Shown here: positions 1 through 14,252 of the stretch, in pieces
Position numbering within the stretch: position 1 is the first letter of the stretch
How the letters are laid out: every line of letters starts with the position of its first letter
From: Neptuniibacter marinus
Lineage (GTDB): Bacteria; Pseudomonadota; Gammaproteobacteria; Pseudomonadales; Balneatricaceae
DNA length: 64,000 nucleotides
Direction of reading: 5' to 3'
Assembly (NCBI RefSeq): GCF_001597725.1
Contig: NZ_LUTR01000019.1
Span: 1-64,000 of the forward strand
Position numbers and translations under genes: made by a program
Notes under the pieces: model-generated
Databases searched by the model: none
What the model saw: only the letters and a program-made list of their open reading frames with translations
What the model was told of the DNA's origin: nothing

Positions 1-76
1 TCAGTGAAACGCCCTGTGCGGATCCGCATGCAGGGTGTTGTGGGGGCTGAGGGTTAGAGACCCTCGGCTACCCGAT
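1..76 (+). mobile_element. 3' end of a group II intron (domains V and VI), partial
   Basis: Bases 8-39 fold as a domain V: a 9-bp lower helix (8-16 with 31-39), a 2-nt TG bulge on the 3' side (29-30), and a 4-bp upper helix closed by a GATC tetraloop. Positions 10-12 read CGC with a G-T wobble at 11/36, the position of the catalytic triad; CGC is the triad described for group IIC introns. Bases 42-73 fold as a domain VI: an 8-bp stem 47-54/60-67 and a basal G-rich/CCC helix with an unpaired A near 70. The element ends CTACCCGAT, matching the usual AY 3' terminus. Any reverse transcriptase ORF would lie to the left, outside the window. The fold is read by eye; the assignment to group II, and to class C, is inference. 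Confidence 0.6.
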
Positions 77-1233
77 TACATGCTGTTTTCGTGAACGATA
101 TTGTACGCCCATTCGGTGAATAGCCGCTCAGCGGCATATCGTTTTTGCATATCGTCACTTGAGGATTTGATGTCGTCAGATTTATTTCTTACTTTAAGAA
201 AATCATCATAGTTATCAACTAACTTTTTGCAGACCATTTTTAAGCTTTCTTCTGAATCGAAAATTAAAAAGGGTAGTTCAATGATTCGAGGTTTTATTTG
301 CGTCTCTATCGGCGTAGAGAATGATTTGCTCGTTACCTCAGAAACCTCCAGAGCTCTAATGTGTTTAAACAAGCTATACTCTATTGTATTTTCCAGGTAG
401 TAAAACAGGTCACAATATACCCCTGTTTCACAACCATCGTTCTTTTCCGGATGATTTATAAATTCAATATTTGGAAACGGTATTTTGAGATTTTCACTTC
501 TAAATCTCACTACAAGTATTTTATGTAGCTCAACGCCCTTATACTTGAGGTAGTAGTAGAACCGGTCAGGCTTTTCAAACAACCCCTCTTCCCACCAGAA
601 TTTTCCTCCAGAGCCTTCGTTACCACCTATCTCTATCGTGTAATCTGGATCAATATCGTAGAATGCCTTACTAACACCATCATATTTCCAATTTTTGAAA
701 TCGACCAACACATTAATAAAACGTTCGGATGCCTTCTTATCCAAGCCGAACCGTTGACGCCACATGGCTTCAACCTCATAGGGGTTTGCACTTCCATCCT
801 TTGGTGTATTTGAATCGCCCATGCGAGAGTATATTGTGCCAGCGCGTACTGTAGCTCCTTGCTTGGTCTCATCTCTGGTCAAGAAATAAGGCTTATATTC
901 TTCATTTCTTATTGTAAGAACATCGAGCTCTTTCCCATCAATTAGAAGTGATTGCAATTTTACATTTGGTATTTTGTGGTATGCAAAACTCTTAGTTCTC
1001 AAGAAATTTAAAATATCCGCCTGTGTATAGCGCACATCGTTTTCGCTGAGGCCAGTTATCTCATAATCATCACTAACTCCAAATATGATAAAACGGTCGC
1101 CGTCATAGATGATATTTGCCAAACACAAAAGATCATGAAGAAGATCATGAAGGTTTGAATGGTGTTGTTTTTTAAAGTCCCACCAGTCACCCTCTCTCTT
1201 TTGCTTCACTAAATGTTCAACTAATTCTTTCAT
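76..1233 (-). CDS. Schlafen/AlbA_2-domain (divergent AAA-4) putative DNA- or nucleotide-binding protein
   Basis: A 385-residue protein. The N-terminal ~130 residues resemble the AlbA_2/Schlafen fold: the EGDWWDFKKQ segment (residues 14-23), the D-RFIIFGVSDD strand near residue 50, and a QAD-LNFLR segment near 71. The remaining ~230 residues match nothing I recognise. Proteins with this domain are often transcription or defence factors in accessory DNA; no precise role can be given. The gene runs leftward and its last codon abuts the 3' end of the antisense-oriented group II intron at 76, so the third base of the TAA stop may come from the intron and the original C-terminus may have been altered. 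The start is the ATG at 1233, with only a weak GAGAT-type ribosome site. Confidence 0.65.
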   Translation of the reverse strand: MKELVEHLVKQKREGDWWDFKKQHHSNLHDLLHDLLCLANIIYDGDRFIIFGVSDDYEITGLSENDVRYTQADILNFLRTKSFAYHKIPNVKLQSLLIDGKELDVLTIRNEEYKPYFLTRDETKQGATVRAGTIYSRMGDSNTPKDGSANPYEVEAMWRQRFGLDKKASERFINVLVDFKNWKYDGVSKAFYDIDPDYTIEIGGNEGSGGKFWWEEGLFEKPDRFYYYLKYKGVELHKILVVRFRSENLKIPFPNIEFINHPEKNDGCETGVYCDLFYYLENTIEYSLFKHIRALEVSEVTSKSFSTPIETQIKPRIIELPFLIFDSEESLKMVCKKLVDNYDDFLKVRNKSDDIKSSSDDMQKRYAAERLFTEWAYNIVHENSM

Positions 1234-1729: not shown

Positions 1730-1814
1730 GTACTGATCTGTATGATTAACCTTAGTGAGTGGCCGCATTCGCTACTTATGGCGAAAAACTAAGACTAAAA
1801 ATTTGGAGAGAACA

Positions 1815-2120
1815 ATGACCGTTGTAGCACCAAAGGACGCAAGGCTCGTTGCACGTGTTCCGCAGGATGTTCAGGAATTTGTAAAAAATGCTGCGGATCT
1901 ATCGGGTTCAACGCTGTCTCAATTTATCGTAGAGGCCGTAACAACCAAGGCCCGATCGGTTTATGAAAGCGAGCAAAGCATTCGCCTCTCAATGCAAGGG
2001 GCAGAAGCTGTTTTTGCCGCTCTAGACAATCCGCCGCCGATCAATAACAAACTTTTGACTGCTGCCAAAACGTTTAACGAAGAAGGTGGATTTAAATATG
2101 CTGGAGACAGTTCAACTTGA
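1815..2120 (+). CDS. DUF1778-family (TacA-like) antitoxin
   Basis: The 101-residue protein has an N-terminal ribbon-helix-helix-like segment (ARLVARVPQDVQEFVKNAAD, residues ~9-28, then GSTLSQFIVEAV), typical of DUF1778 antitoxins. These bind their own operator through the N-terminus and wrap the GNAT toxin with the C-terminal tail (here EAVFAALDNPPPINNKLLTAA, split by the family's FxxLdnPP-like motif). The start is the ATG at 1815 because GGAGAG lies 5 bp upstream; the frame is open back to 1755 but that start has no ribosome site. The last 23 bases overlap the toxin gene, so the two are translationally linked. Repression through the palindrome at 1709-1729 is inferred. Confidence 0.85.
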   Translation: MTVVAPKDARLVARVPQDVQEFVKNAADLSGSTLSQFIVEAVTTKARSVYESEQSIRLSMQGAEAVFAALDNPPPINNKLLTAAKTFNEEGGFKYAGDSST

Positions 2121-2619
2121 TAAGAAGCAACACGACCGCAAAGGTTTTGATTGCGGTGTTGATGTTTTAAACGACTATCTAGCAAAGTATGCAAGCAGTT
2201 CAGATCAACGTTCATTGACTAAAACGTTTGTGCTCGTTGATTCTGAACAGCCCAAGAAAATCATCGGTTTTTATACACTGGCCTATGCAACTGTATCTGT
2301 GCCAGATGGTTTTCCTCGGCTCGCAAACTATCCTTACCCCGCACCGGCCCTGACGTTAGCTCGTATGGCTATAGATAAAAGCTTCAAGAATCATCGCTTC
2401 GGTGAACAGCTACTACTTGAATGTATTAGAAAAACAGCATTGGCTGCTCAACCTGAGAACCCTGCCGCAGTAATAGGGCTCTTTGTTGATGCAAAAGAAG
2501 ATGCTGTTGGTTTTTATAAACAATATGGCTTTATCGAAGTTAGCTGCGAAAATACACGCAAGCTTTACCTCCCCATAACGACTTGCAAGAAGGTCGCTTT
2601 AGCCATGGAAAACGGTTAA
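2098..2619 (+). CDS. GNAT acetyltransferase toxin (TacT/AtaT-like)
   Basis: A 173-residue Gcn5-related N-acetyltransferase. The N-terminal FDCGVDVLNDYLAKYA segment is the hallmark of GNAT toxins that acetylate the amino group of aminoacyl-tRNA and stop translation. LARMAIDKSFKNHRFGEQLL is the acetyl-CoA-binding strand and loop, and the C-terminal FYKQYGF carries the expected catalytic Tyr. I take the ATG at 2098, with AGGTGG 7-8 bp upstream, over the in-frame GTG at 2086. It overlaps the antitoxin by 23 bp. The tRNA-acetylating role is family knowledge; the specific tRNA target is unknown. Confidence 0.85.
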   Translation: MLETVQLDKKQHDRKGFDCGVDVLNDYLAKYASSSDQRSLTKTFVLVDSEQPKKIIGFYTLAYATVSVPDGFPRLANYPYPAPALTLARMAIDKSFKNHRFGEQLLLECIRKTALAAQPENPAAVIGLFVDAKEDAVGFYKQYGFIEVSCENTRKLYLPITTCKKVALAMENG

Positions 2620-2941: not shown

Positions 2942-2975
2942 AAAAAAAGCCCCGACATTGCTGTTAGGGCTTTTT
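2942..2975 (-). terminator. rho-independent terminator just outside the island's left end
   Basis: AAAAAGCCC (2944-2952) pairs with GGGCTTTTT (2967-2975). The longer T run (seven) appears when it is read leftward. No leftward gene lies close to it on the right. Since the nearest leftward core gene beyond the island is gyrB, this may be the original gyrB terminator, separated from it by the island (inference). Confidence 0.7.
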
Positions 2976-2992
2976 AGAGTAAGTAAATGCTT

Positions 2993-3126
2993 TGTCGTTT
3001 CTCATTTGTAGTGAAATGAGGAAGCCTCATAACAAAGGCTATTTCACTCTATATGAGAATAGGACTGCACCTTAAATTCTCACATAGAATGAAATATATA
3101 GACGCTAATCTCACTTAGCTTGAAAT
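2993..3126 (+). repeat. left end array: terminal repeat plus four TCTCA-N7-TGAAAT sites
   Basis: Sites lie at 3000-3017 (plus), 3041-3058 (minus), 3078-3095 (plus) and 3109-3126 (plus). Each has exactly TCTCA, 7 variable bases and TGAAAT. The motif is itself a rough dyad (TYTCA...TGARA), so strand calls are tentative. Confidence 0.7.
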
Positions 3127-3350
3127 GCCAGTTAACCGTCACAACCCACAATAGATTACTCAATGCGACATAAATCAATGTGTATAGAGCTTAGTAGACC
3201 ACTACTGTGTAGTGAAATCCGAACTCTATTACAGATAATCATTAGCCGATCACATGGATCAGGTTAGATTCCAATATAGGCAGATGGTACTGGGTAAATC
3301 AAAAGGGTGGGGAGTGCTATTTGAACGATTATAGCGAGTAACGAGAGCTG

Positions 3351-3614
3351 CTAATTCTTAACTAGTCTAGAGTGCACTTTAGGTAGCTCAGCACCCCATT
3401 TATTTTCCTTATCCATGATTATGTATTTTATATCCGTCTCGTATAGCTCCATACTGCTAGCAAGCTGAATATCTCTGCCACAGTCTACATCAGGTTCAAG
3501 AGTGCCACTAGTAAAGCTATATACTATAAGTTCACCATTACACTCTATAGACATACCATCCTCTATTCGAACCACTCTTACTAACTCATTTGAACAAAAC
3601 GGACTGTACAGCAT
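3351..3614 (-). CDS. hypothetical protein, 87 residues
   Basis: I recognise no family. The start ATG at 3614 has TGAGGT 6 bp upstream, a good ribosome site, and this supports a real gene. The protein is soluble and acidic in its middle part (TLEPDVDCGRDIQ), with three cysteines and no membrane segment. It is the first gene inside the left end of the island and runs leftward, alone. About 220 bp between the end array and its stop, and about 330 bp upstream of it (3615-3948), hold nothing else I can name. Confidence 0.5.
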   Translation of the reverse strand: MLYSPFCSNELVRVVRIEDGMSIECNGELIVYSFTSGTLEPDVDCGRDIQLASSMELYETDIKYIIMDKENKWGAELPKVHSRLVKN

Positions 3615-3948
3615 GATAATAACCTCATTTTTTGATGTGAATGATCATCATTACATGCTTCTGAAAAACCGTAAACTCATTTTTTTTTTGCTATAGACTG
3701 TCACTAGATCACTTAGCCTATGAGATGAATAGTAGCTCCTAGAGGGGCTACTATTCCTGTAGTCATATCAGCATTGATAGTATAGGCAGAGTAGGGCTTA
3801 CTCATTTATACTGCCTGTATAGACATCAACTGAAGCCTAGTCAGCCCAAAGAGTAGTCGGAAAATGCCTAGTGAAGTCTGGGCAGTCCAATCTAACACAA
3901 TAAGGTGTCTACTAAAGGCTGGTCGATTCAGCTGATCGCTTCAAGTGC

Positions 3949-4911
3949 TTACCTTTTACCTGGATAGAAAGTGCCATAATCAGTATTACAGCGCGTTACT
4001 TTGACCTTATCCTGTCTACGTACAATACTGTTCAACTCACGCTTAAACTTGCTTACAGGTAGCTCAGATCCAACTTTTAAGTTTTTATACGACTCAAACC
4101 CCTCAATTGAACATACCCAAGTGAAGTGATCATGGATGTAGCTGGAAAGATAGTCTTGCGCTCTATCTTTCGAGAGCCATCTAAGCAATTCAACAATTCT
4201 CTGATGCTTTAAATTCAACATAGCTATTGCACCTGCAGTATCAGTCGGTGCCGCTATATCAATAGTCAGAGGGGGTGAGTTTTGTGTTCTTCTTCGCTCT
4301 TCAATCAAGTTCCCTTGTTTCCAAACAGGTTCAAAGTGAGCAATGCGGTTACGTATTTTATTAACCATATCCAAACGCGCCCAAAGTACCCCTCTATTAT
4401 GAGTACTGTTCCAATGAGCGTATGTCTTATAGCGATGATATGGAACGATATTAGGTAACACATTTCCCCAATTAACTATTGATTGTTGATTCAACAAAGC
4501 AGGCCAGAAACCAAAGGTCATTTGAGATACAACATCATTAGAAGTAGGCAAAGGGTGCTTGGGGGTCCAACCACCATTAGCCCATCTATGTGTTACCTTC
4601 TGAATTTTACTTGCTGACTTACTATTTAAGCTAATGTAGTTATACCAATCATTTGCGGTCGGAGCCCCTATAGATTGAGGATTAGAAACCTCTTGGCTAA
4701 AAGCCTCATGAAAACGATTGCGAAGAACGACCTCTGTGATAGAAATCAGCCGGAAGAGTGCAGATGACAATGCTTCATTCCAACAATAGAGCCCATAAGC
4801 TTCTTGTTGACTAATATTAGAAAAGAAGGAGTGATATGAGGACATTCTTGCAATCGATATATCATCAATTGTTTGATTTATATTTGCTGGCAGCAAAGCC
4901 TTACTCCACAA
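3949..4911 (-). CDS. Abi-like protein with a HEPN-type motif (abortive-infection family candidate)
   Basis: The 320-residue protein resembles the Abi_2/AbiD-F group. It has an N-terminal helical region with the segment LFRLISITEVVLRNRFHEAF, a central FGFWPALLN segment, and then KIRNRIAHFEPVW at about 185-197. The R187-x4-H192 pair there matches the HEPN RxxxxH motif, the active site of many toxin-type RNases. Members of this family block phage growth by killing or arresting the infected cell; activity here is inferred. The first codon is TTG at 4911 with a poor ribosome site; an internal ATG at residue 23 (MSSYHSFF) is an alternative start. It runs leftward within the defence island. Confidence 0.65.
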   Translation of the reverse strand: MWSKALLPANINQTIDDISIARMSSYHSFFSNISQQEAYGLYCWNEALSSALFRLISITEVVLRNRFHEAFSQEVSNPQSIGAPTANDWYNYISLNSKSASKIQKVTHRWANGGWTPKHPLPTSNDVVSQMTFGFWPALLNQQSIVNWGNVLPNIVPYHRYKTYAHWNSTHNRGVLWARLDMVNKIRNRIAHFEPVWKQGNLIEERRRTQNSPPLTIDIAAPTDTAGAIAMLNLKHQRIVELLRWLSKDRAQDYLSSYIHDHFTWVCSIEGFESYKNLKVGSELPVSKFKRELNSIVRRQDKVKVTRCNTDYGTFYPGKR

Positions 4912-5059
4912 TCCGTTAACGTTATCATTAAAATTAATAGTGACATCCTAAAATCACTTAGGCTATACTTTGTTCCGTAAGCACTCGGGCTTATATCTTA
5001 TTTGAGTTCACTTAGGTCAACCTTATGAGATCCGAGATGCAAAGATACCAAATGCTTTA

Positions 5060-5093
5060 CCAAAAAGGCTTTCCTTACGGGAGGCCTTTTTGG
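5060..5093. terminator. bidirectional terminator
   Basis: CCAAAAAGGC (5060-5069) and GCCTTTTTGG (5084-5093) form a perfect 10-bp stem, extended inside by TCC/GGG pairing. It lies downstream of the leftward gene ending at 5218 and upstream of the Abi-like gene. Confidence 0.8.
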
Positions 5094-5217
5094 CTTCTAA
5101 GCTTTCTCTCTTATACATCATTTTCTTCTGAACAGATTCTTTATCGATAAGTGCACTAACGTCTTAAAATGAATAGACCAGCTTTTCGTAGGCCCTTTAC
5201 TGCGTGTTGATCTGCTT

Positions 5218-6153
5218 TTACAAAAACTTTTCAGCTAAAGCCCGCTTGCCCAAAGGTTCGGTATATGTAGGTCGGCCTTCTCGTAGATAGAAAAACCCCG
5301 AGACATATAAATCGTGATCGCCAATTACAACTTGAACTGACAATTCCTGACCATCGCCCCACGTATCACGAATATTAACCTTGCAAGTTTCACCACGTAA
5401 TTCAAAATCAAACTTTTCGCTATGCTTATCCCAACTGGTCACAGCACTTCGAATGAGAATCTCACAAATTGTGTCTCTCTTCTTTTTTGATAACATTTCG
5501 AGTGAAGATTCTTTGATAGGGCCAAACATACCGCTGTTATTGAAAGCTTCTAGAATTTTTCGCATATGAGCACCTGAGTGCTGATTCACAAATAAAGAAG
5601 AGCGAGATCCATGGGGGTGACCCAAAATCAGAGAACGAATATTCCACCAAGTTTCGGCAACTTGGAAATTCCACGCATCTTTAAGTAAGTGCTGTGAAAA
5701 CCAAATTAAAGCATCGCGGCTACGAATAGTTCCATCTGCTTCTAACTCAACGGTATATGCTTCTACCACCACAGGGTAAGCACTATCAGCATATAAAGAT
5801 TGATCTAGCCGGTAAGCACGAAGCCCATCTAACTGCTCGACCGCTACCACTAGTCGATCAGCTTTATCTTCACTATAAGGACAAGTCACAAATCCACGAA
5901 CAAACATCACGGTGTGGTCTATAGTTTTATAAGCATCCAATTCTTTCATCGAATAAGTTTCTTTAGTTGAGCCTTTCGCAGGTACCGTCAATATTGGATG
6001 CCAATCTGGAAAGCTCTCTACGACGCTTCCTAACTCACTAATAAGAGTATCTAGAACGGCTACCCCTGCATTTGGATCTTCAAGGTTTTTCGTGAGGTAC
6101 TTTGCAGCACGCGCGTTTTGTTCTGTTGCAACTGAAGGTGCTCGAAACTCCAT
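5218..6153 (-). CDS. hypothetical protein, 311 residues, in the defence island
   Basis: No family is recognised. The protein looks like a soluble globular protein without signal peptide or membrane segment. Visible segments are EFRAPSVATEQNARAAKYL at the N-terminus, DHTVMFVRGFVTCPYSEDKADRLVVAVEQLDGLRAY-type beta-rich sequence near 80-115 (broken here into recognisable pieces), and a C-terminal half with DTWGDGQELSVQVVIGDHDL. The start ATG at 6153 has AGGA 7 bp upstream. It diverges from the Gabija operon across 260 bp and ends before a strong terminator, so it is a single-gene unit. Position next to Gabija and an Abi-like gene makes a defence or regulatory role possible, but nothing in the sequence proves it. 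Confidence 0.6.
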   Translation of the reverse strand: MEFRAPSVATEQNARAAKYLTKNLEDPNAGVAVLDTLISELGSVVESFPDWHPILTVPAKGSTKETYSMKELDAYKTIDHTVMFVRGFVTCPYSEDKADRLVVAVEQLDGLRAYRLDQSLYADSAYPVVVEAYTVELEADGTIRSRDALIWFSQHLLKDAWNFQVAETWWNIRSLILGHPHGSRSSLFVNQHSGAHMRKILEAFNNSGMFGPIKESSLEMLSKKKRDTICEILIRSAVTSWDKHSEKFDFELRGETCKVNIRDTWGDGQELSVQVVIGDHDLYVSGFFYLREGRPTYTEPLGKRALAEKFL

Positions 6154-6412
6154 TAAAAATCCTCATGAGTAAGATATACGAATATTAAAACTTTACGTAA
6201 AATCTAAACTTACGTCAATAAAGACTTCATGTTTGATCAAATTAGCTTCCGATAACTGTCCTCATTCCACTCATTAGTTCTGCCATCTATGTAAAAAAAT
6301 AGTCTTAAAGTCTCTATTGAAATGGGATCAGCCCTGACATTGTGAGATATTGCATCAGATAGCTTAGGGACCAGTGACATATGTGCGTTTCAGCACACTA
6401 AGGGATTTTTTT

Positions 6413-8104
6413 ATGTATATAAAGAAAGTAACAATTCACAACTATCGTAGTTTTCGTACTTTTGAGGCCGAACTGCAAAAACTGACTGTTGTTATTGGTG
6501 AAAACGATACCGGTAAAACGAACTTCTTCACCGCTCTTTCGCTACCACTCAGTGGCAACCAGATAGACTTCAGCCAGAAGCGTTTAAGTATTTCAGATAT
6601 CAACAAAGACACCGTCATTGACTTCTTAACGTCAGTAATTAATGACGATGCCGATCAACTTCAGAAAACCCCAAAAGTATCAGTTACTGTTGAGTTCGCA
6701 GATCCACAAGATAGCTATGAGACTGTACTACTAGCTAAATGGCTTGTTTCTGATGGTGATAAAGAAACATACAAAATCAGATATGATTTTAAACCCAAAG
6801 ACGATACGGATTTGCTTGAAGCAGTAAAAAAATCACTTGTAGGAAAAACTATCGACGATATTAACTGGTTTACATTACCCATCGAACTATATGAGTACCA
6901 AATCGTATCAGTAAATAACGAAAAGCCTATCGCATATAGTGACCTAAGACACGTTAGCATCCATAGTATTAATGCTGAGCGAGATGATTTTTCCGAAAGC
7001 AGTTCAATGAAGTCTAATAGCATTTTTACAAAACTTCTTATGAACACTCTAAACGATGATGACAAGAGCCAAATCAACACTGCGTATTCTGAGTTCTTCA
7101 ACGCTATCGAAGAAACAGAAACATTCAACAAAATCATCGGAACCAATCCGGACTTTGACAACTACGATAGTATTATCCAACAGCTAGAATGTACTCCTAA
7201 CCTGCCTAACCTAAAGAATATCTTATCTAACATCACTCTCAAGTACGGCAATGAATTCCTTTACCAAAAAGGCTTGGGACAAAGAAACCTTATTTACATA
7301 CTGATCCTTTTCGCTTACTACAAATCCTGCGGCGATACTTTCAACTTTTGCTGCATAGAGGAGCCAGAAGCACACCTAAGTGTAAACAATCTGCGGTTCG
7401 TGCGAGATTTCATTGAGAAGAGTTCAAGTAACAGCGGTTCGCTCGTGCAAACCATCATTTCGACTCACAACCCATCAATAATCAACAAACTCAAAATTTC
7501 AAATGTGCTGGCTTTTACAGGAGAGAACGCGATAAGTTTGTCAAACACTCCAATTAAGCTAGTTGATTACCTGAGAAAAAGACCGAACTTCGACATCCTT
7601 AAACTCCTATTCGCAAACAAAGTCATTCTTGTCGAAGGTCCAACAGAAGAAATGTTGATTAGCACATACCTGTCGAAACAGGCCGCTCTTAACGACATTG
7701 ATATTATTGCTATTGGTCAACGTGGTTACGCTACATTCCTAGATATATGGCTTGAACTAAACAAGGGTAATCCGAACAAGAAAATCGGCATTATTCGTGA
7801 CTACGACAACTCAGATGCCTCAAAAGCAAGACATGATGCTTATGATACTGCTCACGAGAATGTCACTGTAAGAACAACTACGAATTACACACTTGAGATT
7901 GATTTGGTTGAAGCAGAAGACAACTTAGCTTTACTAAATAGTTTGTTTGGAATGACAGGAGACGTAAAAGAAGTATCGGAGCACATGATCAATGGTAAAA
8001 CAGCAAGAATGCTAGATGTATGTGATGCAATGATTCAAGACAAAGACCCATTAGACATCAAGCTACCGGCTCACATTGCTCAGGTCATCGAGGCTGTAAC
8101 ATGA
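6413..8104 (+). CDS. gajA: GajA: OLD-family ATPase/TOPRIM endonuclease of a Gabija anti-phage system
   Basis: The 563-residue protein begins with an ABC-type ATPase: Walker A GENDTGKT (residues 29-36), a signature region GLGQRNLIYILILFAYY, Walker B FCCIEEPEAHLS, and an H-loop TIISTHNP. The C-terminal TOPRIM nuclease shows VILVEGPTEEM near residue 405 (the metal-binding Glu) and IIRDYDNSD near 462 (the DxD pair). Length, domain order and a directly downstream UvrD-like helicase fit Gabija, in which GajA nicks DNA when phage replication depletes nucleotides. The ATG at 6413 is chosen because AAGGGA lies 7-8 bp upstream; the frame is open to a GTG at 6374. The stop overlaps the start of gajB (ATGA), indicating coupled translation. 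Confidence 0.85.
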   Translation: MYIKKVTIHNYRSFRTFEAELQKLTVVIGENDTGKTNFFTALSLPLSGNQIDFSQKRLSISDINKDTVIDFLTSVINDDADQLQKTPKVSVTVEFADPQDSYETVLLAKWLVSDGDKETYKIRYDFKPKDDTDLLEAVKKSLVGKTIDDINWFTLPIELYEYQIVSVNNEKPIAYSDLRHVSIHSINAERDDFSESSSMKSNSIFTKLLMNTLNDDDKSQINTAYSEFFNAIEETETFNKIIGTNPDFDNYDSIIQQLECTPNLPNLKNILSNITLKYGNEFLYQKGLGQRNLIYILILFAYYKSCGDTFNFCCIEEPEAHLSVNNLRFVRDFIEKSSSNSGSLVQTIISTHNPSIINKLKISNVLAFTGENAISLSNTPIKLVDYLRKRPNFDILKLLFANKVILVEGPTEEMLISTYLSKQAALNDIDIIAIGQRGYATFLDIWLELNKGNPNKKIGIIRDYDNSDASKARHDAYDTAHENVTVRTTTNYTLEIDLVEAEDNLALLNSLFGMTGDVKEVSEHMINGKTARMLDVCDAMIQDKDPLDIKLPAHIAQVIEAVT

Positions 8105-9477
8105 TTGAAGTGCAGATTGCTGGGGCTGGCGCTGGTAAAACTTACGGATTAGCTGAATCTTTGGTACAGCACATCAAAGCTTATACTAACCATAAAAAAA
8201 CATTTGCTTTAACGTACACAAACACGGCAACAGCTAAAATCGAACAAGAAATAATCAAACAACATGGGTTTATCCCTAAAAATCTTTGCATTCAAACAGT
8301 GCATAGCTTTTTGCTGAATGAAATTATCTACCCGTTTTCATCGTTCACTCTCGGTGATGTCTATAATGACGCTTCGATTATGATACTACCAAGTAACCCT
8401 AGGTATAAACATAGCCTTTTTGCACGACTGCGAGAGCGAAATGTCATTCACGCTGAAAACGTTTATAACATCGCCAAACTAATTATTGATGAAAAAGTTA
8501 GCAGGCACAGAACCAGAGCTAATAAAGCTAAGGTTCAACGACTCCTGGCTATTCTTGAAAACTGCTTTGACAAAATATTTATTGATGAAGTCCAAGACTT
8601 AGATAGCGATGCGTTGCGAATATTCGAGGTATTTGGTTGCAACGGCATTGACGTATACATGATCGGAGACCCAAAGCAAGCTATCAAGTACCCCAAAGCA
8701 CTTGATACATTCGTTGATAAAATATCAGCACAAGAATACGCAACAATATTAAAGATCAATAATCAAACTAGACGAGTACCTAAGGAAATCTTAGCGATCT
8801 CAAACAGCTTTTGTTATGAAAATCAGCAACAGGAGTCATTATCAGAAATCGTTGGAGAGTTATGGTATATCGAATCCATCGATGCTAGATACGACGAACT
8901 GCTAAGTGGTTATATAGAAACAAAAGAGATTGTTTGCATCGACAAGAAAGCCGGTCGCTATTCGACATCATCAAAACATAAGCATTCATTTCCTAGAGAG
9001 ATCGAGGACATGATTCGGGAATCAAAGCACAAGAAAGACAAGATATTGTTTGTTAAAGCAGCTTTTACCGACTTCATGAATAATGTTACTGAAATTGGTG
9101 CGAGAGCCGCTATTAATAGGCTAAAAGCCAGACATTCATTAACCTTAGAAAAATATCATTTTGCTCAGCTATATGAACTATGCGACAAGTGCAAAGAAGA
9201 TAATGTGCAGTTTACTATCCAAAGCATTGACTCAGTTAAAGGTCTCGATGCTGATACATGCGTAATTGTCCTAAGCACCAACACACTGAAATACTTAACT
9301 GGAAATAATCTCAGTAAAGCCGATCATTTTAATAAAGAATGGAAGAAAGTCTACGTTGCTTTAACGCGGGCAAAAAAGAAGCTGGTACTGGCCCTGGATC
9401 ATGACCTGCTCTCCGGTTCTAACATGGAGGTAGTGAAAGATGCCATTGAAGCATTAGGTTTTGCTTCTCATGAGTAA
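8101..9477 (+). CDS. gajB: GajB: UvrD/Rep-like helicase of the Gabija system
   Basis: A 458-residue superfamily 1 helicase. Walker A is GAGAGKT near the N-terminus, motif Ia is TYTNTATAKIE, Walker B is FIDEVQDLD, motif III is MIGDPKQAIK, motif IV is NNQTRRVP, motif V is QSIDSVKGLDADTCVIV, and motif VI is VYVALTRAKKKL. It is shorter than UvrD (about 720 residues), as known for GajB (about 490). It overlaps gajA by 4 bp. In the characterised system GajB binds the GajA tetramer and senses DNA ends or ssDNA; that role is family knowledge. No further gene follows closely; 9478-9884 has no convincing CDS. Confidence 0.85.
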   Translation: MIEVQIAGAGAGKTYGLAESLVQHIKAYTNHKKTFALTYTNTATAKIEQEIIKQHGFIPKNLCIQTVHSFLLNEIIYPFSSFTLGDVYNDASIMILPSNPRYKHSLFARLRERNVIHAENVYNIAKLIIDEKVSRHRTRANKAKVQRLLAILENCFDKIFIDEVQDLDSDALRIFEVFGCNGIDVYMIGDPKQAIKYPKALDTFVDKISAQEYATILKINNQTRRVPKEILAISNSFCYENQQQESLSEIVGELWYIESIDARYDELLSGYIETKEIVCIDKKAGRYSTSSKHKHSFPREIEDMIRESKHKKDKILFVKAAFTDFMNNVTEIGARAAINRLKARHSLTLEKYHFAQLYELCDKCKEDNVQFTIQSIDSVKGLDADTCVIVLSTNTLKYLTGNNLSKADHFNKEWKKVYVALTRAKKKLVLALDHDLLSGSNMEVVKDAIEALGFASHE

Positions 9478-9884
9478 CTTGATGTTGTTCTTTATCACCA
9501 CCTGCTCTTTAGGCATAAAAATGTATAGTGGTTTTACTCCGATTCTTCGTTTGGTCAATTTAGAGCTATGGACTTACGGTTCTAGGTATTACCGCTTAAC
9601 TACTGCTATATCAGCTAGGAACTAATCCAATGACTGAAGAAGTAACGATTTACAGTTAACTAAATACTCTATATTCACAAATAGAGAAAACTATTTGGAT
9701 AGGTGAAAAAACAGCCACTAGCGGATTAAACAAACTAAAATAATAACGTCTTAACCATTCAAAGTGCCTAACTCATGGAATCGTCCATACGTAAGACCCT
9801 CACAATAAATAGCTCTGTAACTGACAAGCTACAGAGGATAAATGACTATCTTCTCAAACATAAAATTCAACACATCCTATTCGT
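9478..9884 (+). other. stretch after gajB without a convincing gene; possible broken N-terminus of the next ORF
   Basis: An ORF at 9775-9957 (60 codons) and a short one starting at 9842 behind a good AGAGGA site (MTIFSNIKFN, stop after 17 codons) both run into the next gene in other frames. This might be the frameshifted beginning of the following membrane protein gene, or chance. No terminator is evident after gajB. Confidence 0.3.
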
Positions 9885-10298
9885 ATGCACTGTAAACTTG
9901 GTACGGTCTTGTTATCTGGGCGCTTTCATAAATTCAGATTCAAGTATCATCACTTAGAGCACACTAAATTGAAGCTTGAAATCGAAAAATTAAAGAGAGA
10001 GCTAGGAAGTGAACCGCAAGACATAATGGTAGAGATCGAAAATCCGACCCACAATCCTAATACTGCTTGGCAAAAAACCACCTTTAAGCTTCGTTTTAGA
10101 GCTTTACAAGTCATTAAGCTCTTAATGTTCCCTTTTGGGGTAATGGCAATTGTCTTAACCGGAACAGCACTGGTTGCAGTAGGTGAGGATAAGGCAGCAA
10201 CAGGAATAATCATGCCATTTCTGCTTTTGGATGTAATTCTTTACGGATCTTATGTTTATGTAGATGAGTGGTTGAAATACAACCAAGAAAAGATATAA
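9885..10298 (+). CDS. hypothetical small membrane protein with two membrane segments; start uncertain
   Basis: The open frame covers 137 residues. From about residue 26 it has a charged helix (LKLEIEKLKRELG), then two hydrophobic segments, roughly VIKLLMFPFGVMAIVLTGTA and IIMPFLLLDVILYGSYVYV, separated by a short charged loop. The topology predicted is two passes with both ends cytoplasmic. No ribosome site precedes the ATG at 9885, and the first 25 residues look unlike real protein, so the true start may be internal or the gene may be frameshifted (see 9478-9884). It is followed after about 80 bp by the Cys-His-Asp protein gene, suggesting an operon. Confidence 0.45.
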   Translation: MHCKLGTVLLSGRFHKFRFKYHHLEHTKLKLEIEKLKRELGSEPQDIMVEIENPTHNPNTAWQKTTFKLRFRALQVIKLLMFPFGVMAIVLTGTALVAVGEDKAATGIIMPFLLLDVILYGSYVYVDEWLKYNQEKI

Positions 10299-10379
10299 GG
10301 AAAAATTCAATCGCCTCGATTGGACGCTCTTTGCGCATTTACTGAGGCGTTATACGCTATTGATCGAAAGGATATAAAA

Positions 10380-10961
10380 ATGGAATTAAGGGAAATATCT
10401 CCAGCTGAAAACATGTCTTCTGATGAATTTCTTCAGTTCGCACATCCTGAACAAATAAAAATAGTAAATATTATCAGGCAGCAAAAACTCAATGGTGAGC
10501 GAACATCTCCATCTGAACTGCTTATAGATGACTCAAAAATATTAAATGAAGAATTTCGAAAAGCATTAATCGATAAAGTAGCTTCTCTTGTCGATGAGAA
10601 TTTATTTGGCCGTTCTGAAATGTGCCAACAGTTTGCCATGCTTCTTAGTCTCTCATTGAACCACTTAGGTATTTACTCAAAAGTTGTGTTAGGGAAAGCA
10701 ACATACAGCAACGGTTTCTCATGGATACATTGTTGGGTTTGCACAAAAGAAGAAATCATAGACGCAAACGCTGATAGCATGTTGGAGAATCCAGCAATCC
10801 CAAGTGATTTAGCTCCTAAGCCATTTTGGGGATCTAAGGCCAATTTACCAAAAGACCGGAAATTTAAGCCAAAACCTAATGCAAAGGTCCCAAAGGATAC
10901 AGACGTTAATAATATTTGGTGGCCAGAATTAAAAATTTGGATTTCTCAATATAATAAGTAG
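10380..10961 (+). CDS. putative transglutaminase/papain-like fold protein with a Cys-His-Asp triad
   Basis: The 193-residue protein contains SEMCQQFAMLLSL (Cys82), FSWIHCWV (His117) and EIIDANADSM (Asp128). This order and spacing (Cys at a helix start, His in a beta strand followed by an aromatic residue, Asp 11 residues later) matches transglutaminase-like and related cysteine-protease folds. The substrate is unknown. The start ATG at 10380 has AAGGA 7 bp upstream; the frame is open to a TTG at 10320. It sits between a small membrane protein and an unknown gene in the island, reading the same way, which suggests a three-gene unit of unknown, possibly defensive, function. Family assignment is from the motif pattern only. 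Confidence 0.55.
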   Translation: MELREISPAENMSSDEFLQFAHPEQIKIVNIIRQQKLNGERTSPSELLIDDSKILNEEFRKALIDKVASLVDENLFGRSEMCQQFAMLLSLSLNHLGIYSKVVLGKATYSNGFSWIHCWVCTKEEIIDANADSMLENPAIPSDLAPKPFWGSKANLPKDRKFKPKPNAKVPKDTDVNNIWWPELKIWISQYNK

Positions 10962-11023
10962 CTGTAGCGAATCGTCGCTGCACGACTTCCTCTTAGATAG
11001 GCATTAGCAGTAAAGGATAGTAA

Positions 11024-11635
11024 ATGAGCATTACCAATTGTCGTGGGGATAAAGCTAAATTAGACATAGTATCGAACTACGATATAAAACCAGTAGTTTA
11101 CGTAAGACTATTGAGCGGGCAAAAAATAAACGGATGCTGTGGCCCAATAACGGATAAATATTATCTATTTGAGGCAGAAAACAAACAGACCAAAGATATT
11201 GACACTTTCTGCGTTGGTTACGATTGCGGCGATCAGCTTCTCCAATTAATAAATCATAATCCTCTTCAACTGTTTGACCCCTTTCAAGCTCAATATGGAG
11301 GTCAAGGAGGTGGGAATGGAGGTGAAGCACAGCAGCTACATCCACTAAATAAAGAGCTAAGAAACGCAATTCACATATTGTGCTCAGCTTGGGGAGGAAA
11401 AGCCCCTAAAGCTGGACTAAGGAAGTTTCTTGAATATATTAATAAGAACCCATCACGTCCTACAAACTCTTTTGCAATTACAAGTTTCAATCGAATTGTT
11501 AGTAAAGACGCAAAAGGCAGAACGTTAACACAGATAATTGGTGATATTCGTCTAAAAAATCCAAACTTAAGAAACTTCTCGTTCCCTTTGATGGAACAGG
11601 TTCTTAAAGATGAAAAACAAACCAGCAATCTATAA
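11024..11635 (+). CDS. hypothetical protein, 203 residues, with a Gly/Gln-rich linker
   Basis: No family is recognised. AAAGGA lies 6 bp before the ATG, supporting the start. The protein has a Cys-rich beta-like N-terminal domain (CRGDKAKLDI near residue 6, GCCGP near 37, FCVGYDCGDQLL near 62), then a linker YGGQGGGNGGEAQQ at about 90-103, then a helical, basic C-terminal domain. Two domains joined by a flexible linker suggest a binding module plus an effector or adaptor module (inference). It is last in the rightward run of island genes and precedes a terminator. Confidence 0.55.
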   Translation: MSITNCRGDKAKLDIVSNYDIKPVVYVRLLSGQKINGCCGPITDKYYLFEAENKQTKDIDTFCVGYDCGDQLLQLINHNPLQLFDPFQAQYGGQGGGNGGEAQQLHPLNKELRNAIHILCSAWGGKAPKAGLRKFLEYINKNPSRPTNSFAITSFNRIVSKDAKGRTLTQIIGDIRLKNPNLRNFSFPLMEQVLKDEKQTSNL

Positions 11636-11709
11636 AGCTGCTAAGTCAACTGATGCTTGCTGTGCAAATGCATGGTTTAAAACAGACCTGCTAATGCATT
11701 AACTCCAAT

Positions 11710-11738
11710 AAAAAAGCAGCCTATTCGGCTGCTTTTTT
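11710..11738. terminator. bidirectional terminator inside the island's right end
   Basis: AAAAAAGCAGCC (11710-11721) pairs with GGCTGCTTTTTT (11727-11738). It can stop transcripts from the rightward island genes and also leftward transcripts from gyrB that have crossed the island's right end. Confidence 0.85.
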
Positions 11739-11744
11739 CCCCTA

Positions 11745-11812
11745 ATTTCATTTTAAATGAGACGTTATTTCACTATGCTGAGACGCCATTTCATTTCAAA
11801 TGAGATTTGACA
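11745..11812 (-). repeat. right end array: terminal repeat plus three TCTCA-N7-TGAAAT sites
   Basis: Read leftward, the sites are 11805-11788 and 11762-11745 (7-bp spacers) and 11783-11767 (6-bp spacer). They repeat every 21-22 bp, two helical turns, all in one orientation. An additional TGTCATTT at 11820-11813 resembles the first 8 bases of the left end, so the exact terminus could be 11812 or 11820. Confidence 0.7.
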
Positions 11813-11822
11813 AAATGACAAA

Positions 11823-14252
<2,430 letters not shown>

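What the first reader, a model, noticed from the sequence alone, without database searches (positions are those of the whole stretch)
2993..11812. Defence island with terminal inverted repeats inserted at the end of gyrB and lacking its own transposase
Both ends carry a 26-bp inverted repeat (21/26 identical) starting TGTC, plus several copies of TCTCA-N7-TGAAAT: four within 134 bp on the left, three at 21-22 bp spacing on the right. The interior is a run of defence-type and unknown genes. The right end is 10 bp past the gyrB stop, and a leftward terminator sits just beyond the left end, as if the island had separated gyrB from its terminator. Multiple binding-site-like repeats at asymmetric ends recall Tn7-type elements, but no tns genes are present. 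This may be a cargo element mobilised in trans, and gyrB would be an unusual target.
Basis: partly seen in the sequence, partly recalled or inferred. Interest (0 to 1): 0.85.

Follow-up and report, generated by a model that had tools for sequence, protein, structure and literature searches.

The report
Transposase-less Tn7-like defence island behind gyrB
A stretch of phage-defence genes sits just after the essential gyrase gene gyrB between the ends of a Tn7-like mobile element; its own transposition genes are gone, but relatives in other marine bacteria carry complete elements at the same spot, so gyrB appears to be a favoured docking site for this transposon family.

Summary
Window 2993-11812 (8,820 bp) runs TGTC...GACA, with four TnsB-site-like repeats on the left (spacing 41/37/31) and three on the right (22/21); its right end lies 10 bp past the gyrB stop. 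It carries Gabija and an Abi_2 gene but no tns gene, and searches found no TnsA, TnsB, TnsC or TniQ in the genome. Related end arrays at the same place bound complete tnsA-tnsB-tnsC-tniQ elements in relatives; four elements in three same-genus genomes have exact 5-bp duplications. In 84,980 species genomes, 15 of 23 exact right-end matches lie 8-14 bp after gyrB. Elements stack there. 13 of 17 gyrB-side right ends carry a terminator-like hairpin, and the native gyrB terminator ends up beyond the left end. So this is a non-autonomous Tn7-like element of a gyrB-homing family. Trans-mobilisation is possible but not shown; the window's duplication is imperfect. No paper seen names gyrB as a Tn7-type site, but one describes a Tn7-like transposon in Pseudomonas putida whose locus numbers suggest this site; key subscription papers were unavailable.

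The parts
2993..11812 (.). Non-autonomous Tn7-like element, 8,820 bp, TGTC...GACA
2993..3126 (.). Left end: TGTC plus four TnsB-site-like repeats (3000-3017 +, 3041-3058 -, 3078-3095 +, 3109-3126 +), spacing 41/37/31
   Evidence: same spacing and orientation at two left ends in G004 (L060) and in G035 (L109)
11745..11812 (.). Right end: three repeats (11745-11762, 11767-11783 with N6, 11788-11805), spacing 22/21, ending GACA, 10 bp from the gyrB stop
11710..11738 (-). Terminator-like hairpin carried inside the right end, in gyrB sense (GCAGCC..GGCTGC + T run)
   Evidence: 13 of 17 gyrB-adjacent right ends have one by my rule; not listed
2942..2976 (-). Native gyrB terminator-like hairpin, displaced beyond the left end
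   Evidence: G003 has it directly after gyrB
11823..14252 (-). gyrB, attachment gene
6374..8104 (+). GajA (Gabija, OLD-type nuclease)
   Evidence: PDLC00078 E 2.3e-273
8101..9477 (+). GajB (Gabija, UvrD-like helicase)
   Evidence: PDLC00120 E 5.6e-202
3949..4911 (-). Abi_2 family protein, PD-T4-5-like
   Evidence: Abi_2 E 1.2e-8, PD-T4-5 E 1.6e-21
5218..6153 (-). Unknown 311-aa cargo protein; 91% nt-identical stretch inside the complete gyrB element of genome G025
9885..10298 (+). Small protein of unknown function (137 aa)
   Evidence: no family over cut-off
10320..10961 (+). Unknown protein (213 aa), weak transglutaminase-like match below cut-off
   Evidence: E 0.059
11024..11635 (+). Unknown protein (203 aa)
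   Evidence: no family
3351..3614 (-). Short ORF (87 aa) next to the left end; a 23-aa chance-level similarity to a TniQ stretch
   Evidence: E 0.042, not significant

Best explanation
The island is a Tn7-like transposon of a clade that homes to the 3' end of gyrB. Complete members encode TnsA, TnsB, TnsC and a large TniQ/TnsD-like protein (the two Marinobacterium members also a second, shorter TniQ). TniQ/TnsD presumably binds the conserved end of the gyrB coding sequence and recruits TnsC. TnsAB, bound to the arrays of about 18-bp sites at both ends, inserts the element typically 8-14 bp after the gyrB stop, with the close-spaced (right) end towards gyrB and a 5-bp duplication. The insertion separates gyrB from its terminator, and the right end usually supplies another hairpin. 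The window copy has kept both end arrays and a defence cargo (Gabija, Abi_2) but lacks the whole tns block, so it could move only if TnsABC-TniQ came from another element. Shown here: ends, site, complete relatives with duplications, tandem stacking, no TnsA/TnsB/TnsC/TniQ match in the genome. Inferred: TnsB binding to the repeats, gyrB recognition by TniQ, function of the hairpin, mobilisation in trans.
For: Complete tnsA-B-C-tniQ sets at gyrB in G003, G008 and G004 (same genus), G025, G071, G014; in G004 gyrB and tns lie on two contigs joined by matching ends and duplication. G098 has tnsC-tniQ only; G088 has a set split over two contigs. All 9 long TniQ matches (>370 bits, 8 genomes) belong to elements or stacks at gyrB; 3 of the 9 are the rows of the query alignment itself and a fourth is nearly identical to one of them. 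Pfam: TnsA, Mu-transpos_C, TniB, TniQ. Duplications AAGTA (G008), ATGGC (G003), AGTAC and TACTT (two G004 elements). Left array 44/44 in the window, 43/42 in G025/G098, 43 twice in G004. 15 of 23 exact right-end matches in 84,980 species genomes follow gyrB. Cargo stretch 5170-6162 is 91% identical to cargo of the G025 element. TnsA, TniQ, TnsB, TnsC not found in the own genome.
Against: No clean 5-bp duplication at the window copy: AAGCA touches the left end, CATTT the right end, so the two ends may come from different insertions or the flank has changed. G003's element is inserted 61 bp after gyrB, past the terminator, so site choice is not absolute. The left-array template is weak in G008 (33, shuffles up to 28) and not above or barely above shuffles in G003, G014 and G071, so left ends vary. 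Right ends also occur away from gyrB (Balneatrix; Neptunomonas antarctica twice). Nothing here measures binding or transposition.
Confidence: 0.9

Rival explanations
1. (A state of the best explanation.) Dead derivative: a formerly complete element lost tnsABC-tniQ by deletion or recombination between stacked elements and is now an immobile defence island kept for its cargo and perhaps its terminator.
For: No intact target duplication. Stacked elements that could recombine are seen in G004, G025, G098, G014 and G062. TniQ fragments lie between gyrB and a left end in G035 and beside a left end in G004. 12 of 17 family genomes with an exact right end have no TnsB match above 800 bits.
Against: All seven end sites are intact (44/44 on the left, exact pattern on the right), although decay would be expected without selection.
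Confidence: 0.5
2. (A state of the best explanation.) Trans-mobilised cargo element: the tns-less form is itself a mobile unit, moved by TnsABC-TniQ of a co-resident autonomous relative, like a minimal Tn7.
For: Complete, canonical ends. Autonomous relatives with the same left-end spacing in the same genus. A possible very short unit (about 2.3 kb) at gyrB in G062, which has no TnsB or TniQ match; its left end scores 30 against at most 28 in shuffles, so it is weak.
Against: No cognate transposase found in this genome, no clean duplication, no second copy of the same unit found.
Confidence: 0.4
3. The repeats are ordinary regulatory sites of the gyrB 3' region, inherited vertically.
For: They lie at the same place in many genomes.
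Against: No right end in the 400 bp after gyrB in five genomes of the same genus (G006, G009, G010, G002, G005); duplications, different cargo, stacked copies and copies away from gyrB.
Confidence: 0.02

Closest known systems
Tn7 (glmS-homing, TnsABCDE)
   Same: Arrayed TnsB sites at asymmetric ends, close-spaced right end towards the attachment gene, 5-bp duplication (review passages), insertion just after an essential gene
   Different: gyrB instead of glmS; TnsB profile only distantly matches Tn7 TnsB (125 bits)
Type I-F3 CRISPR-associated transposons (Tn6677, PseCAST) and their TnsD-carrying relatives such as Tn7017
   Same: Nearest solved TnsB relatives (341 and 334 bits); TnsABC-TniQ layout; Faure 2023 describes a branch with dual tniQ-tnsD mostly lacking Cascade (passage), and G014/G088 have two TniQ-like proteins
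   Different: The large TniQ/TnsD-like protein (about 626 aa) suggests protein-guided homing; an HTH_17 match is sub-threshold in 2 of 3 proteins scanned; cas genes were not profile-searched in these elements
Tn7-like defence cargo islands (Benler et al. 2021, PMC8649781)
   Same: Gabija is listed there as the next most frequent immune system after restriction-modification (passages seen)
   Different: As I read the passages, that survey delimits elements from their transposase; this one has none. gyrB does not occur in its main text
Tn7-like transposon of Pseudomonas putida HB3267 (PMC4731212)
   Same: Its locus tags B479_00025-B479_00140 (section 12) suggest a place just after gyrB in the dnaA-dnaN-recF-gyrB cluster; that is my inference from numbering, not stated there
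   Different: Metabolic and transport cargo, clade unknown; I did not examine its sequence

Membership tests
Tn7-like transposon | Asymmetric arrays of repeated transposase sites at both ends, terminal TGT..ACA | tested here: met
   TGTC/GACA, 4 sites left, 3 right (that TnsB binds them is inferred)
Tn7-like transposon | 5-bp target-site duplication | tested here: inconclusive
   Window copy: AAGCA left, CATTT right. Met in four relatives' elements
Tn7-like transposon | Fixed site and orientation beside a conserved gene | tested here: met
   Right end 8-14 bp after gyrB in 17 right ends, window included; 15 of 23 database matches; exception G003 at 61 bp
Tn7-like transposon | Encodes TnsA/TnsB/TnsC and TniQ/TnsD | tested here: not met
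   Absent in the window element and not found in the genome; present in relatives. Hence a non-autonomous derivative, not a complete member
Gabija defence system | GajA and GajB adjacent | tested here: met
   genes overlap by 4 bp
CRISPR-associated transposon | Cascade or Cas12k genes and CRISPR array | not tested
   No cas family search was run on the relatives; among the window element's genes the only Cas-named hit is a weak Cas13a-piece match of the Abi gene (E 0.0043)

The most novel reading that the evidence does not exclude
gyrB, in the dnaA-dnaN-recF-gyrB cluster, is a stackable homing site for a Tn7-like family. New elements insert between gyrB and older ones, each bringing a replacement terminator in its right end so that gyrB is not harmed. 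A large population of tns-less defence units shares these ends and is moved in trans, making a modular, growing defence island.
Probability: 0.35. Interest if true: 0.7.

Novelty: new variant of a known kind. Interest (0 to 1): 0.5.

Why it matters
It adds gyrB, not named as such in any paper I saw, to the homing sites of Tn7-like transposons, in a clade whose TnsB is nearest (among solved structures) to that of I-F3 CASTs. It shows tandem accretion at one site with nested target duplications, and suggests how an insertion behind an essential gene can be made harmless through a built-in terminator. It also gives a simple 19-base pattern with which transposase-less defence islands of this kind can be found.

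Tried and rejected
Plasmid search with the whole element by DNA (near mode): no match. TnsB of this clade in plasmids: 3,571 records match, all under 60% identity; the 15 rows listed are 25-32% identical, so no close plasmid carrier was found. Search for decayed tns genes in the window element: nothing significant (best 23 aa, E 0.042). Left ends for seven other right-end genomes (G062, G016, G091, G033, G031, G063, G105) within about 40 kb: none with an exact duplication. By array score G062 rose slightly above shuffles (30 against at most 28) and G016 marginally (29 against 28, too close to the right end to be credible); the other five did not. These may be solo right ends or elements with degenerate left ends. 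No tns set was found in those stretches; only a TnsB-like piece in G016. The idea that differing inner letters of the two ends (AAA / GTT) prove a hybrid was dropped, because G025 also differs (GAA / GTT) and keeps what reads as a duplication TGTCG, though there the next right end also begins TGTCG. A longer duplication (AAGCATTT left, CATTT right) was considered and not settled. G009's lone end beside phn-like genes was not resolved. TnsC in the own genome was searched with one protein only, and the tool warns that an empty answer without a positive genome shows little. Papers asked for by identifiers partly from memory and not held: recalled as Petassi 2020, Parks and Peters 2007, Klompe 2022, Peters 2017. 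That glmS transcription ends inside inserted Tn7 is recalled, not checked.
Full report
What is there. Window 2993-11812 is bounded by TGTC and GACA with imperfect inverted ends (28 nt, 82%). Six exact copies of TCTCA-N7-TGAAAT occur in the window, all at these ends, and a seventh has N6. The whole genome has ten exact copies. The left end has sites at 3000+, 3041-, 3078+, 3109+ (spacing 41/37/31); the right end has three at 22/21 spacing. The left array scores 44 of 44, against at most 28 in 20 shuffles (the template came from this array and G004). The right end lies 10 bp after the gyrB stop. Inside are Gabija (GajA, GajB), an Abi_2/PD-T4-5-like gene and several genes without a family over cut-off.

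Empty and filled sites. Among 11 genomes of the genus (own included), G006, G009, G010, G002, G005 and G007 show no right end in the 400 bp after gyrB; G001 is cut by a contig end. G003 shows the window's left flank (2930-2992, 94% identical) directly behind gyrB, so in the window 8,820 bp separate gyrB from its native terminator. G008, G004 and G003 carry elements with related ends behind gyrB.

Complete relatives. G008 and G003 have, inside, a small HTH gene (by eye), tnsA, tnsB, tnsC and tniQ; G004 has two such sets. Pfam confirms TnsA, Mu-transpos_C, TniB and TniQ for one G004 set and TniQ in G008 and G025. Duplications: AAGTA (G008, 20.1 kb), ATGGC (G003), AGTAC and TACTT (two G004 elements, the second 14.7 kb). 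For the first G004 element the two ends lie on different contigs (C90 and C149), paired by matching TGTCGGTTCTCAT ends and the duplication. The G004 order reads as one insertion (TACTT) followed by a second one closer to gyrB (AGTAC), pushing the first outward. Two left ends in G004 have the window's exact spacing and orientation. The left-array template is weaker in G008 (33) and not clearly above shuffles in G003, G014 and G071.

Wider occurrence. In the family, 20 of 116 genomes have any TniQ match at E 0.001, but only 8 genomes (9 proteins) have long strong ones (>370 bits). All 9 belong to elements or stacks at gyrB; three of the nine are the query rows, and G088 is inferred from two contigs. 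G014 and G088 also have a second, shorter TniQ. The 19-base right-end pattern gave 23 stretches (20 assemblies by record title) in a collection of 84,980 species genomes. 15 directly follow gyrB, in Marinobacterium, Neptunomonas, Neptuniibacter, Motiliproteus, Nitrincola, Amphritea, Pontibacterium, an uncultured Oceanospirillaceae, Microbulbifer and a Cellvibrionaceae MAG; in L125 only the last codons of gyrB are on the locus. Of the 8 others, three lie behind a left-end-like sequence (L117, L120, L124), three are elsewhere (Balneatrix; Neptunomonas antarctica twice), and two are in unrelated phyla and may be chance or distant relatives (Ktedonobacter, with TnsB/TnsC-like matches; Nocardioides). 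These records overlap with the G genomes and are not independent.

Non-autonomy. TnsA, TniQ, TnsB and TnsC searches of the own genome (99.87% complete, 117 contigs) found nothing. 17 of 116 family genomes have an exact right end; 12 of these 17 have no TnsB match above 800 bits, three of the 12 having weaker ones. The tns-less state is therefore common, but one search found no left end with an exact duplication in seven such genomes, so many may be remnants. The window stretch 5170-6162 is 91% identical over 993 bp to a stretch inside the complete G025 element, while GyrB of the two hosts is 77% identical, which speaks for transfer of cargo.

Terminator. By my own hairpin rule, a hairpin with a T run lies 60-180 bp inside 16 of 25 right ends examined, 13 of 17 at gyrB, against 17 of 1,000 random 120-base stretches of the same loci. 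The four gyrB-adjacent right ends without one are L114, L116, L119 and L123. Two of the 25 (L126, L136) are cut short. The separate consensus scan did not list the window's hairpins. That this hairpin replaces the lost gyrB terminator is inference.

Literature. Nine searches. Benler 2021, the 2024 review (PMC11406308) and Faure 2023 do not contain gyrB or gyrase in the held main text (passages seen). 15 papers hold both 'Tn7-like' and 'gyrB'; I saw passages of 10 of them, where gyrB is a marker gene, a resistance gene or otherwise unconnected with the transposon, and the other 5 only as listings. In one of the 10 (PMC4731212, section 12 read) a Tn7-like transposon of Pseudomonas putida HB3267 has locus tags B479_00025-B479_00140, which suggests a place next to gyrB, though the paper does not say so. 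Supplements and several subscription papers were not available, so the claim of novelty is limited. Gabija as frequent Tn7 cargo is known. The nearest solved TnsB chains are Tn6677 and PseCAST.

Verdict. A non-autonomous Tn7-like defence element in a gyrB-homing family. The family and site are well supported; whether this copy is mobile in trans or dead is open.

Noticed in passing
window 76-1233 (-): Schlafen/AlbA_2 protein matching PADLOC PDC-S50 (E 5.2e-87) just left of the island, another candidate defence gene.
   Followed up: no
window 1755-2619 (+): YlcI/YnfO-type match followed by an acetyltransferase-like gene (weak match); looks like a toxin-antitoxin pair. The second gene is 98% conserved at the same flank in G003.
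   Followed up: partly
L060:1-11040 and L061:5688: Stack of elements behind gyrB in one genome with nested target duplications, plus an extra left end (about 235) followed by a TniQ C-terminal fragment.
   Followed up: partly
L104 (G098:C16): Element at gyrB with tnsC and tniQ but no tnsA/tnsB found; the bases at its two ends suggest a 7-bp rather than 5-bp duplication (TACAGAT).
   Followed up: partly
L011:11724 and L012:4712-4797 (G009): Isolated right-end-like sequence beside phosphonate (phn-like, by eye) genes and a degraded left-end-like array 13 kb away; possibly a decayed element elsewhere than gyrB.
   Followed up: partly
L175:2703-5010 (G062): Possible very short unit (about 2.3 kb) between right and left ends at gyrB, followed at once by another right end, in a single-contig genome without TnsB or TniQ match.
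   Followed up: partly
Pseudomonas putida HB3267, B479_00025-B479_00140 (paper only): Published Tn7-like transposon whose locus numbers suggest insertion next to gyrB; sequence not examined.
   Followed up: no
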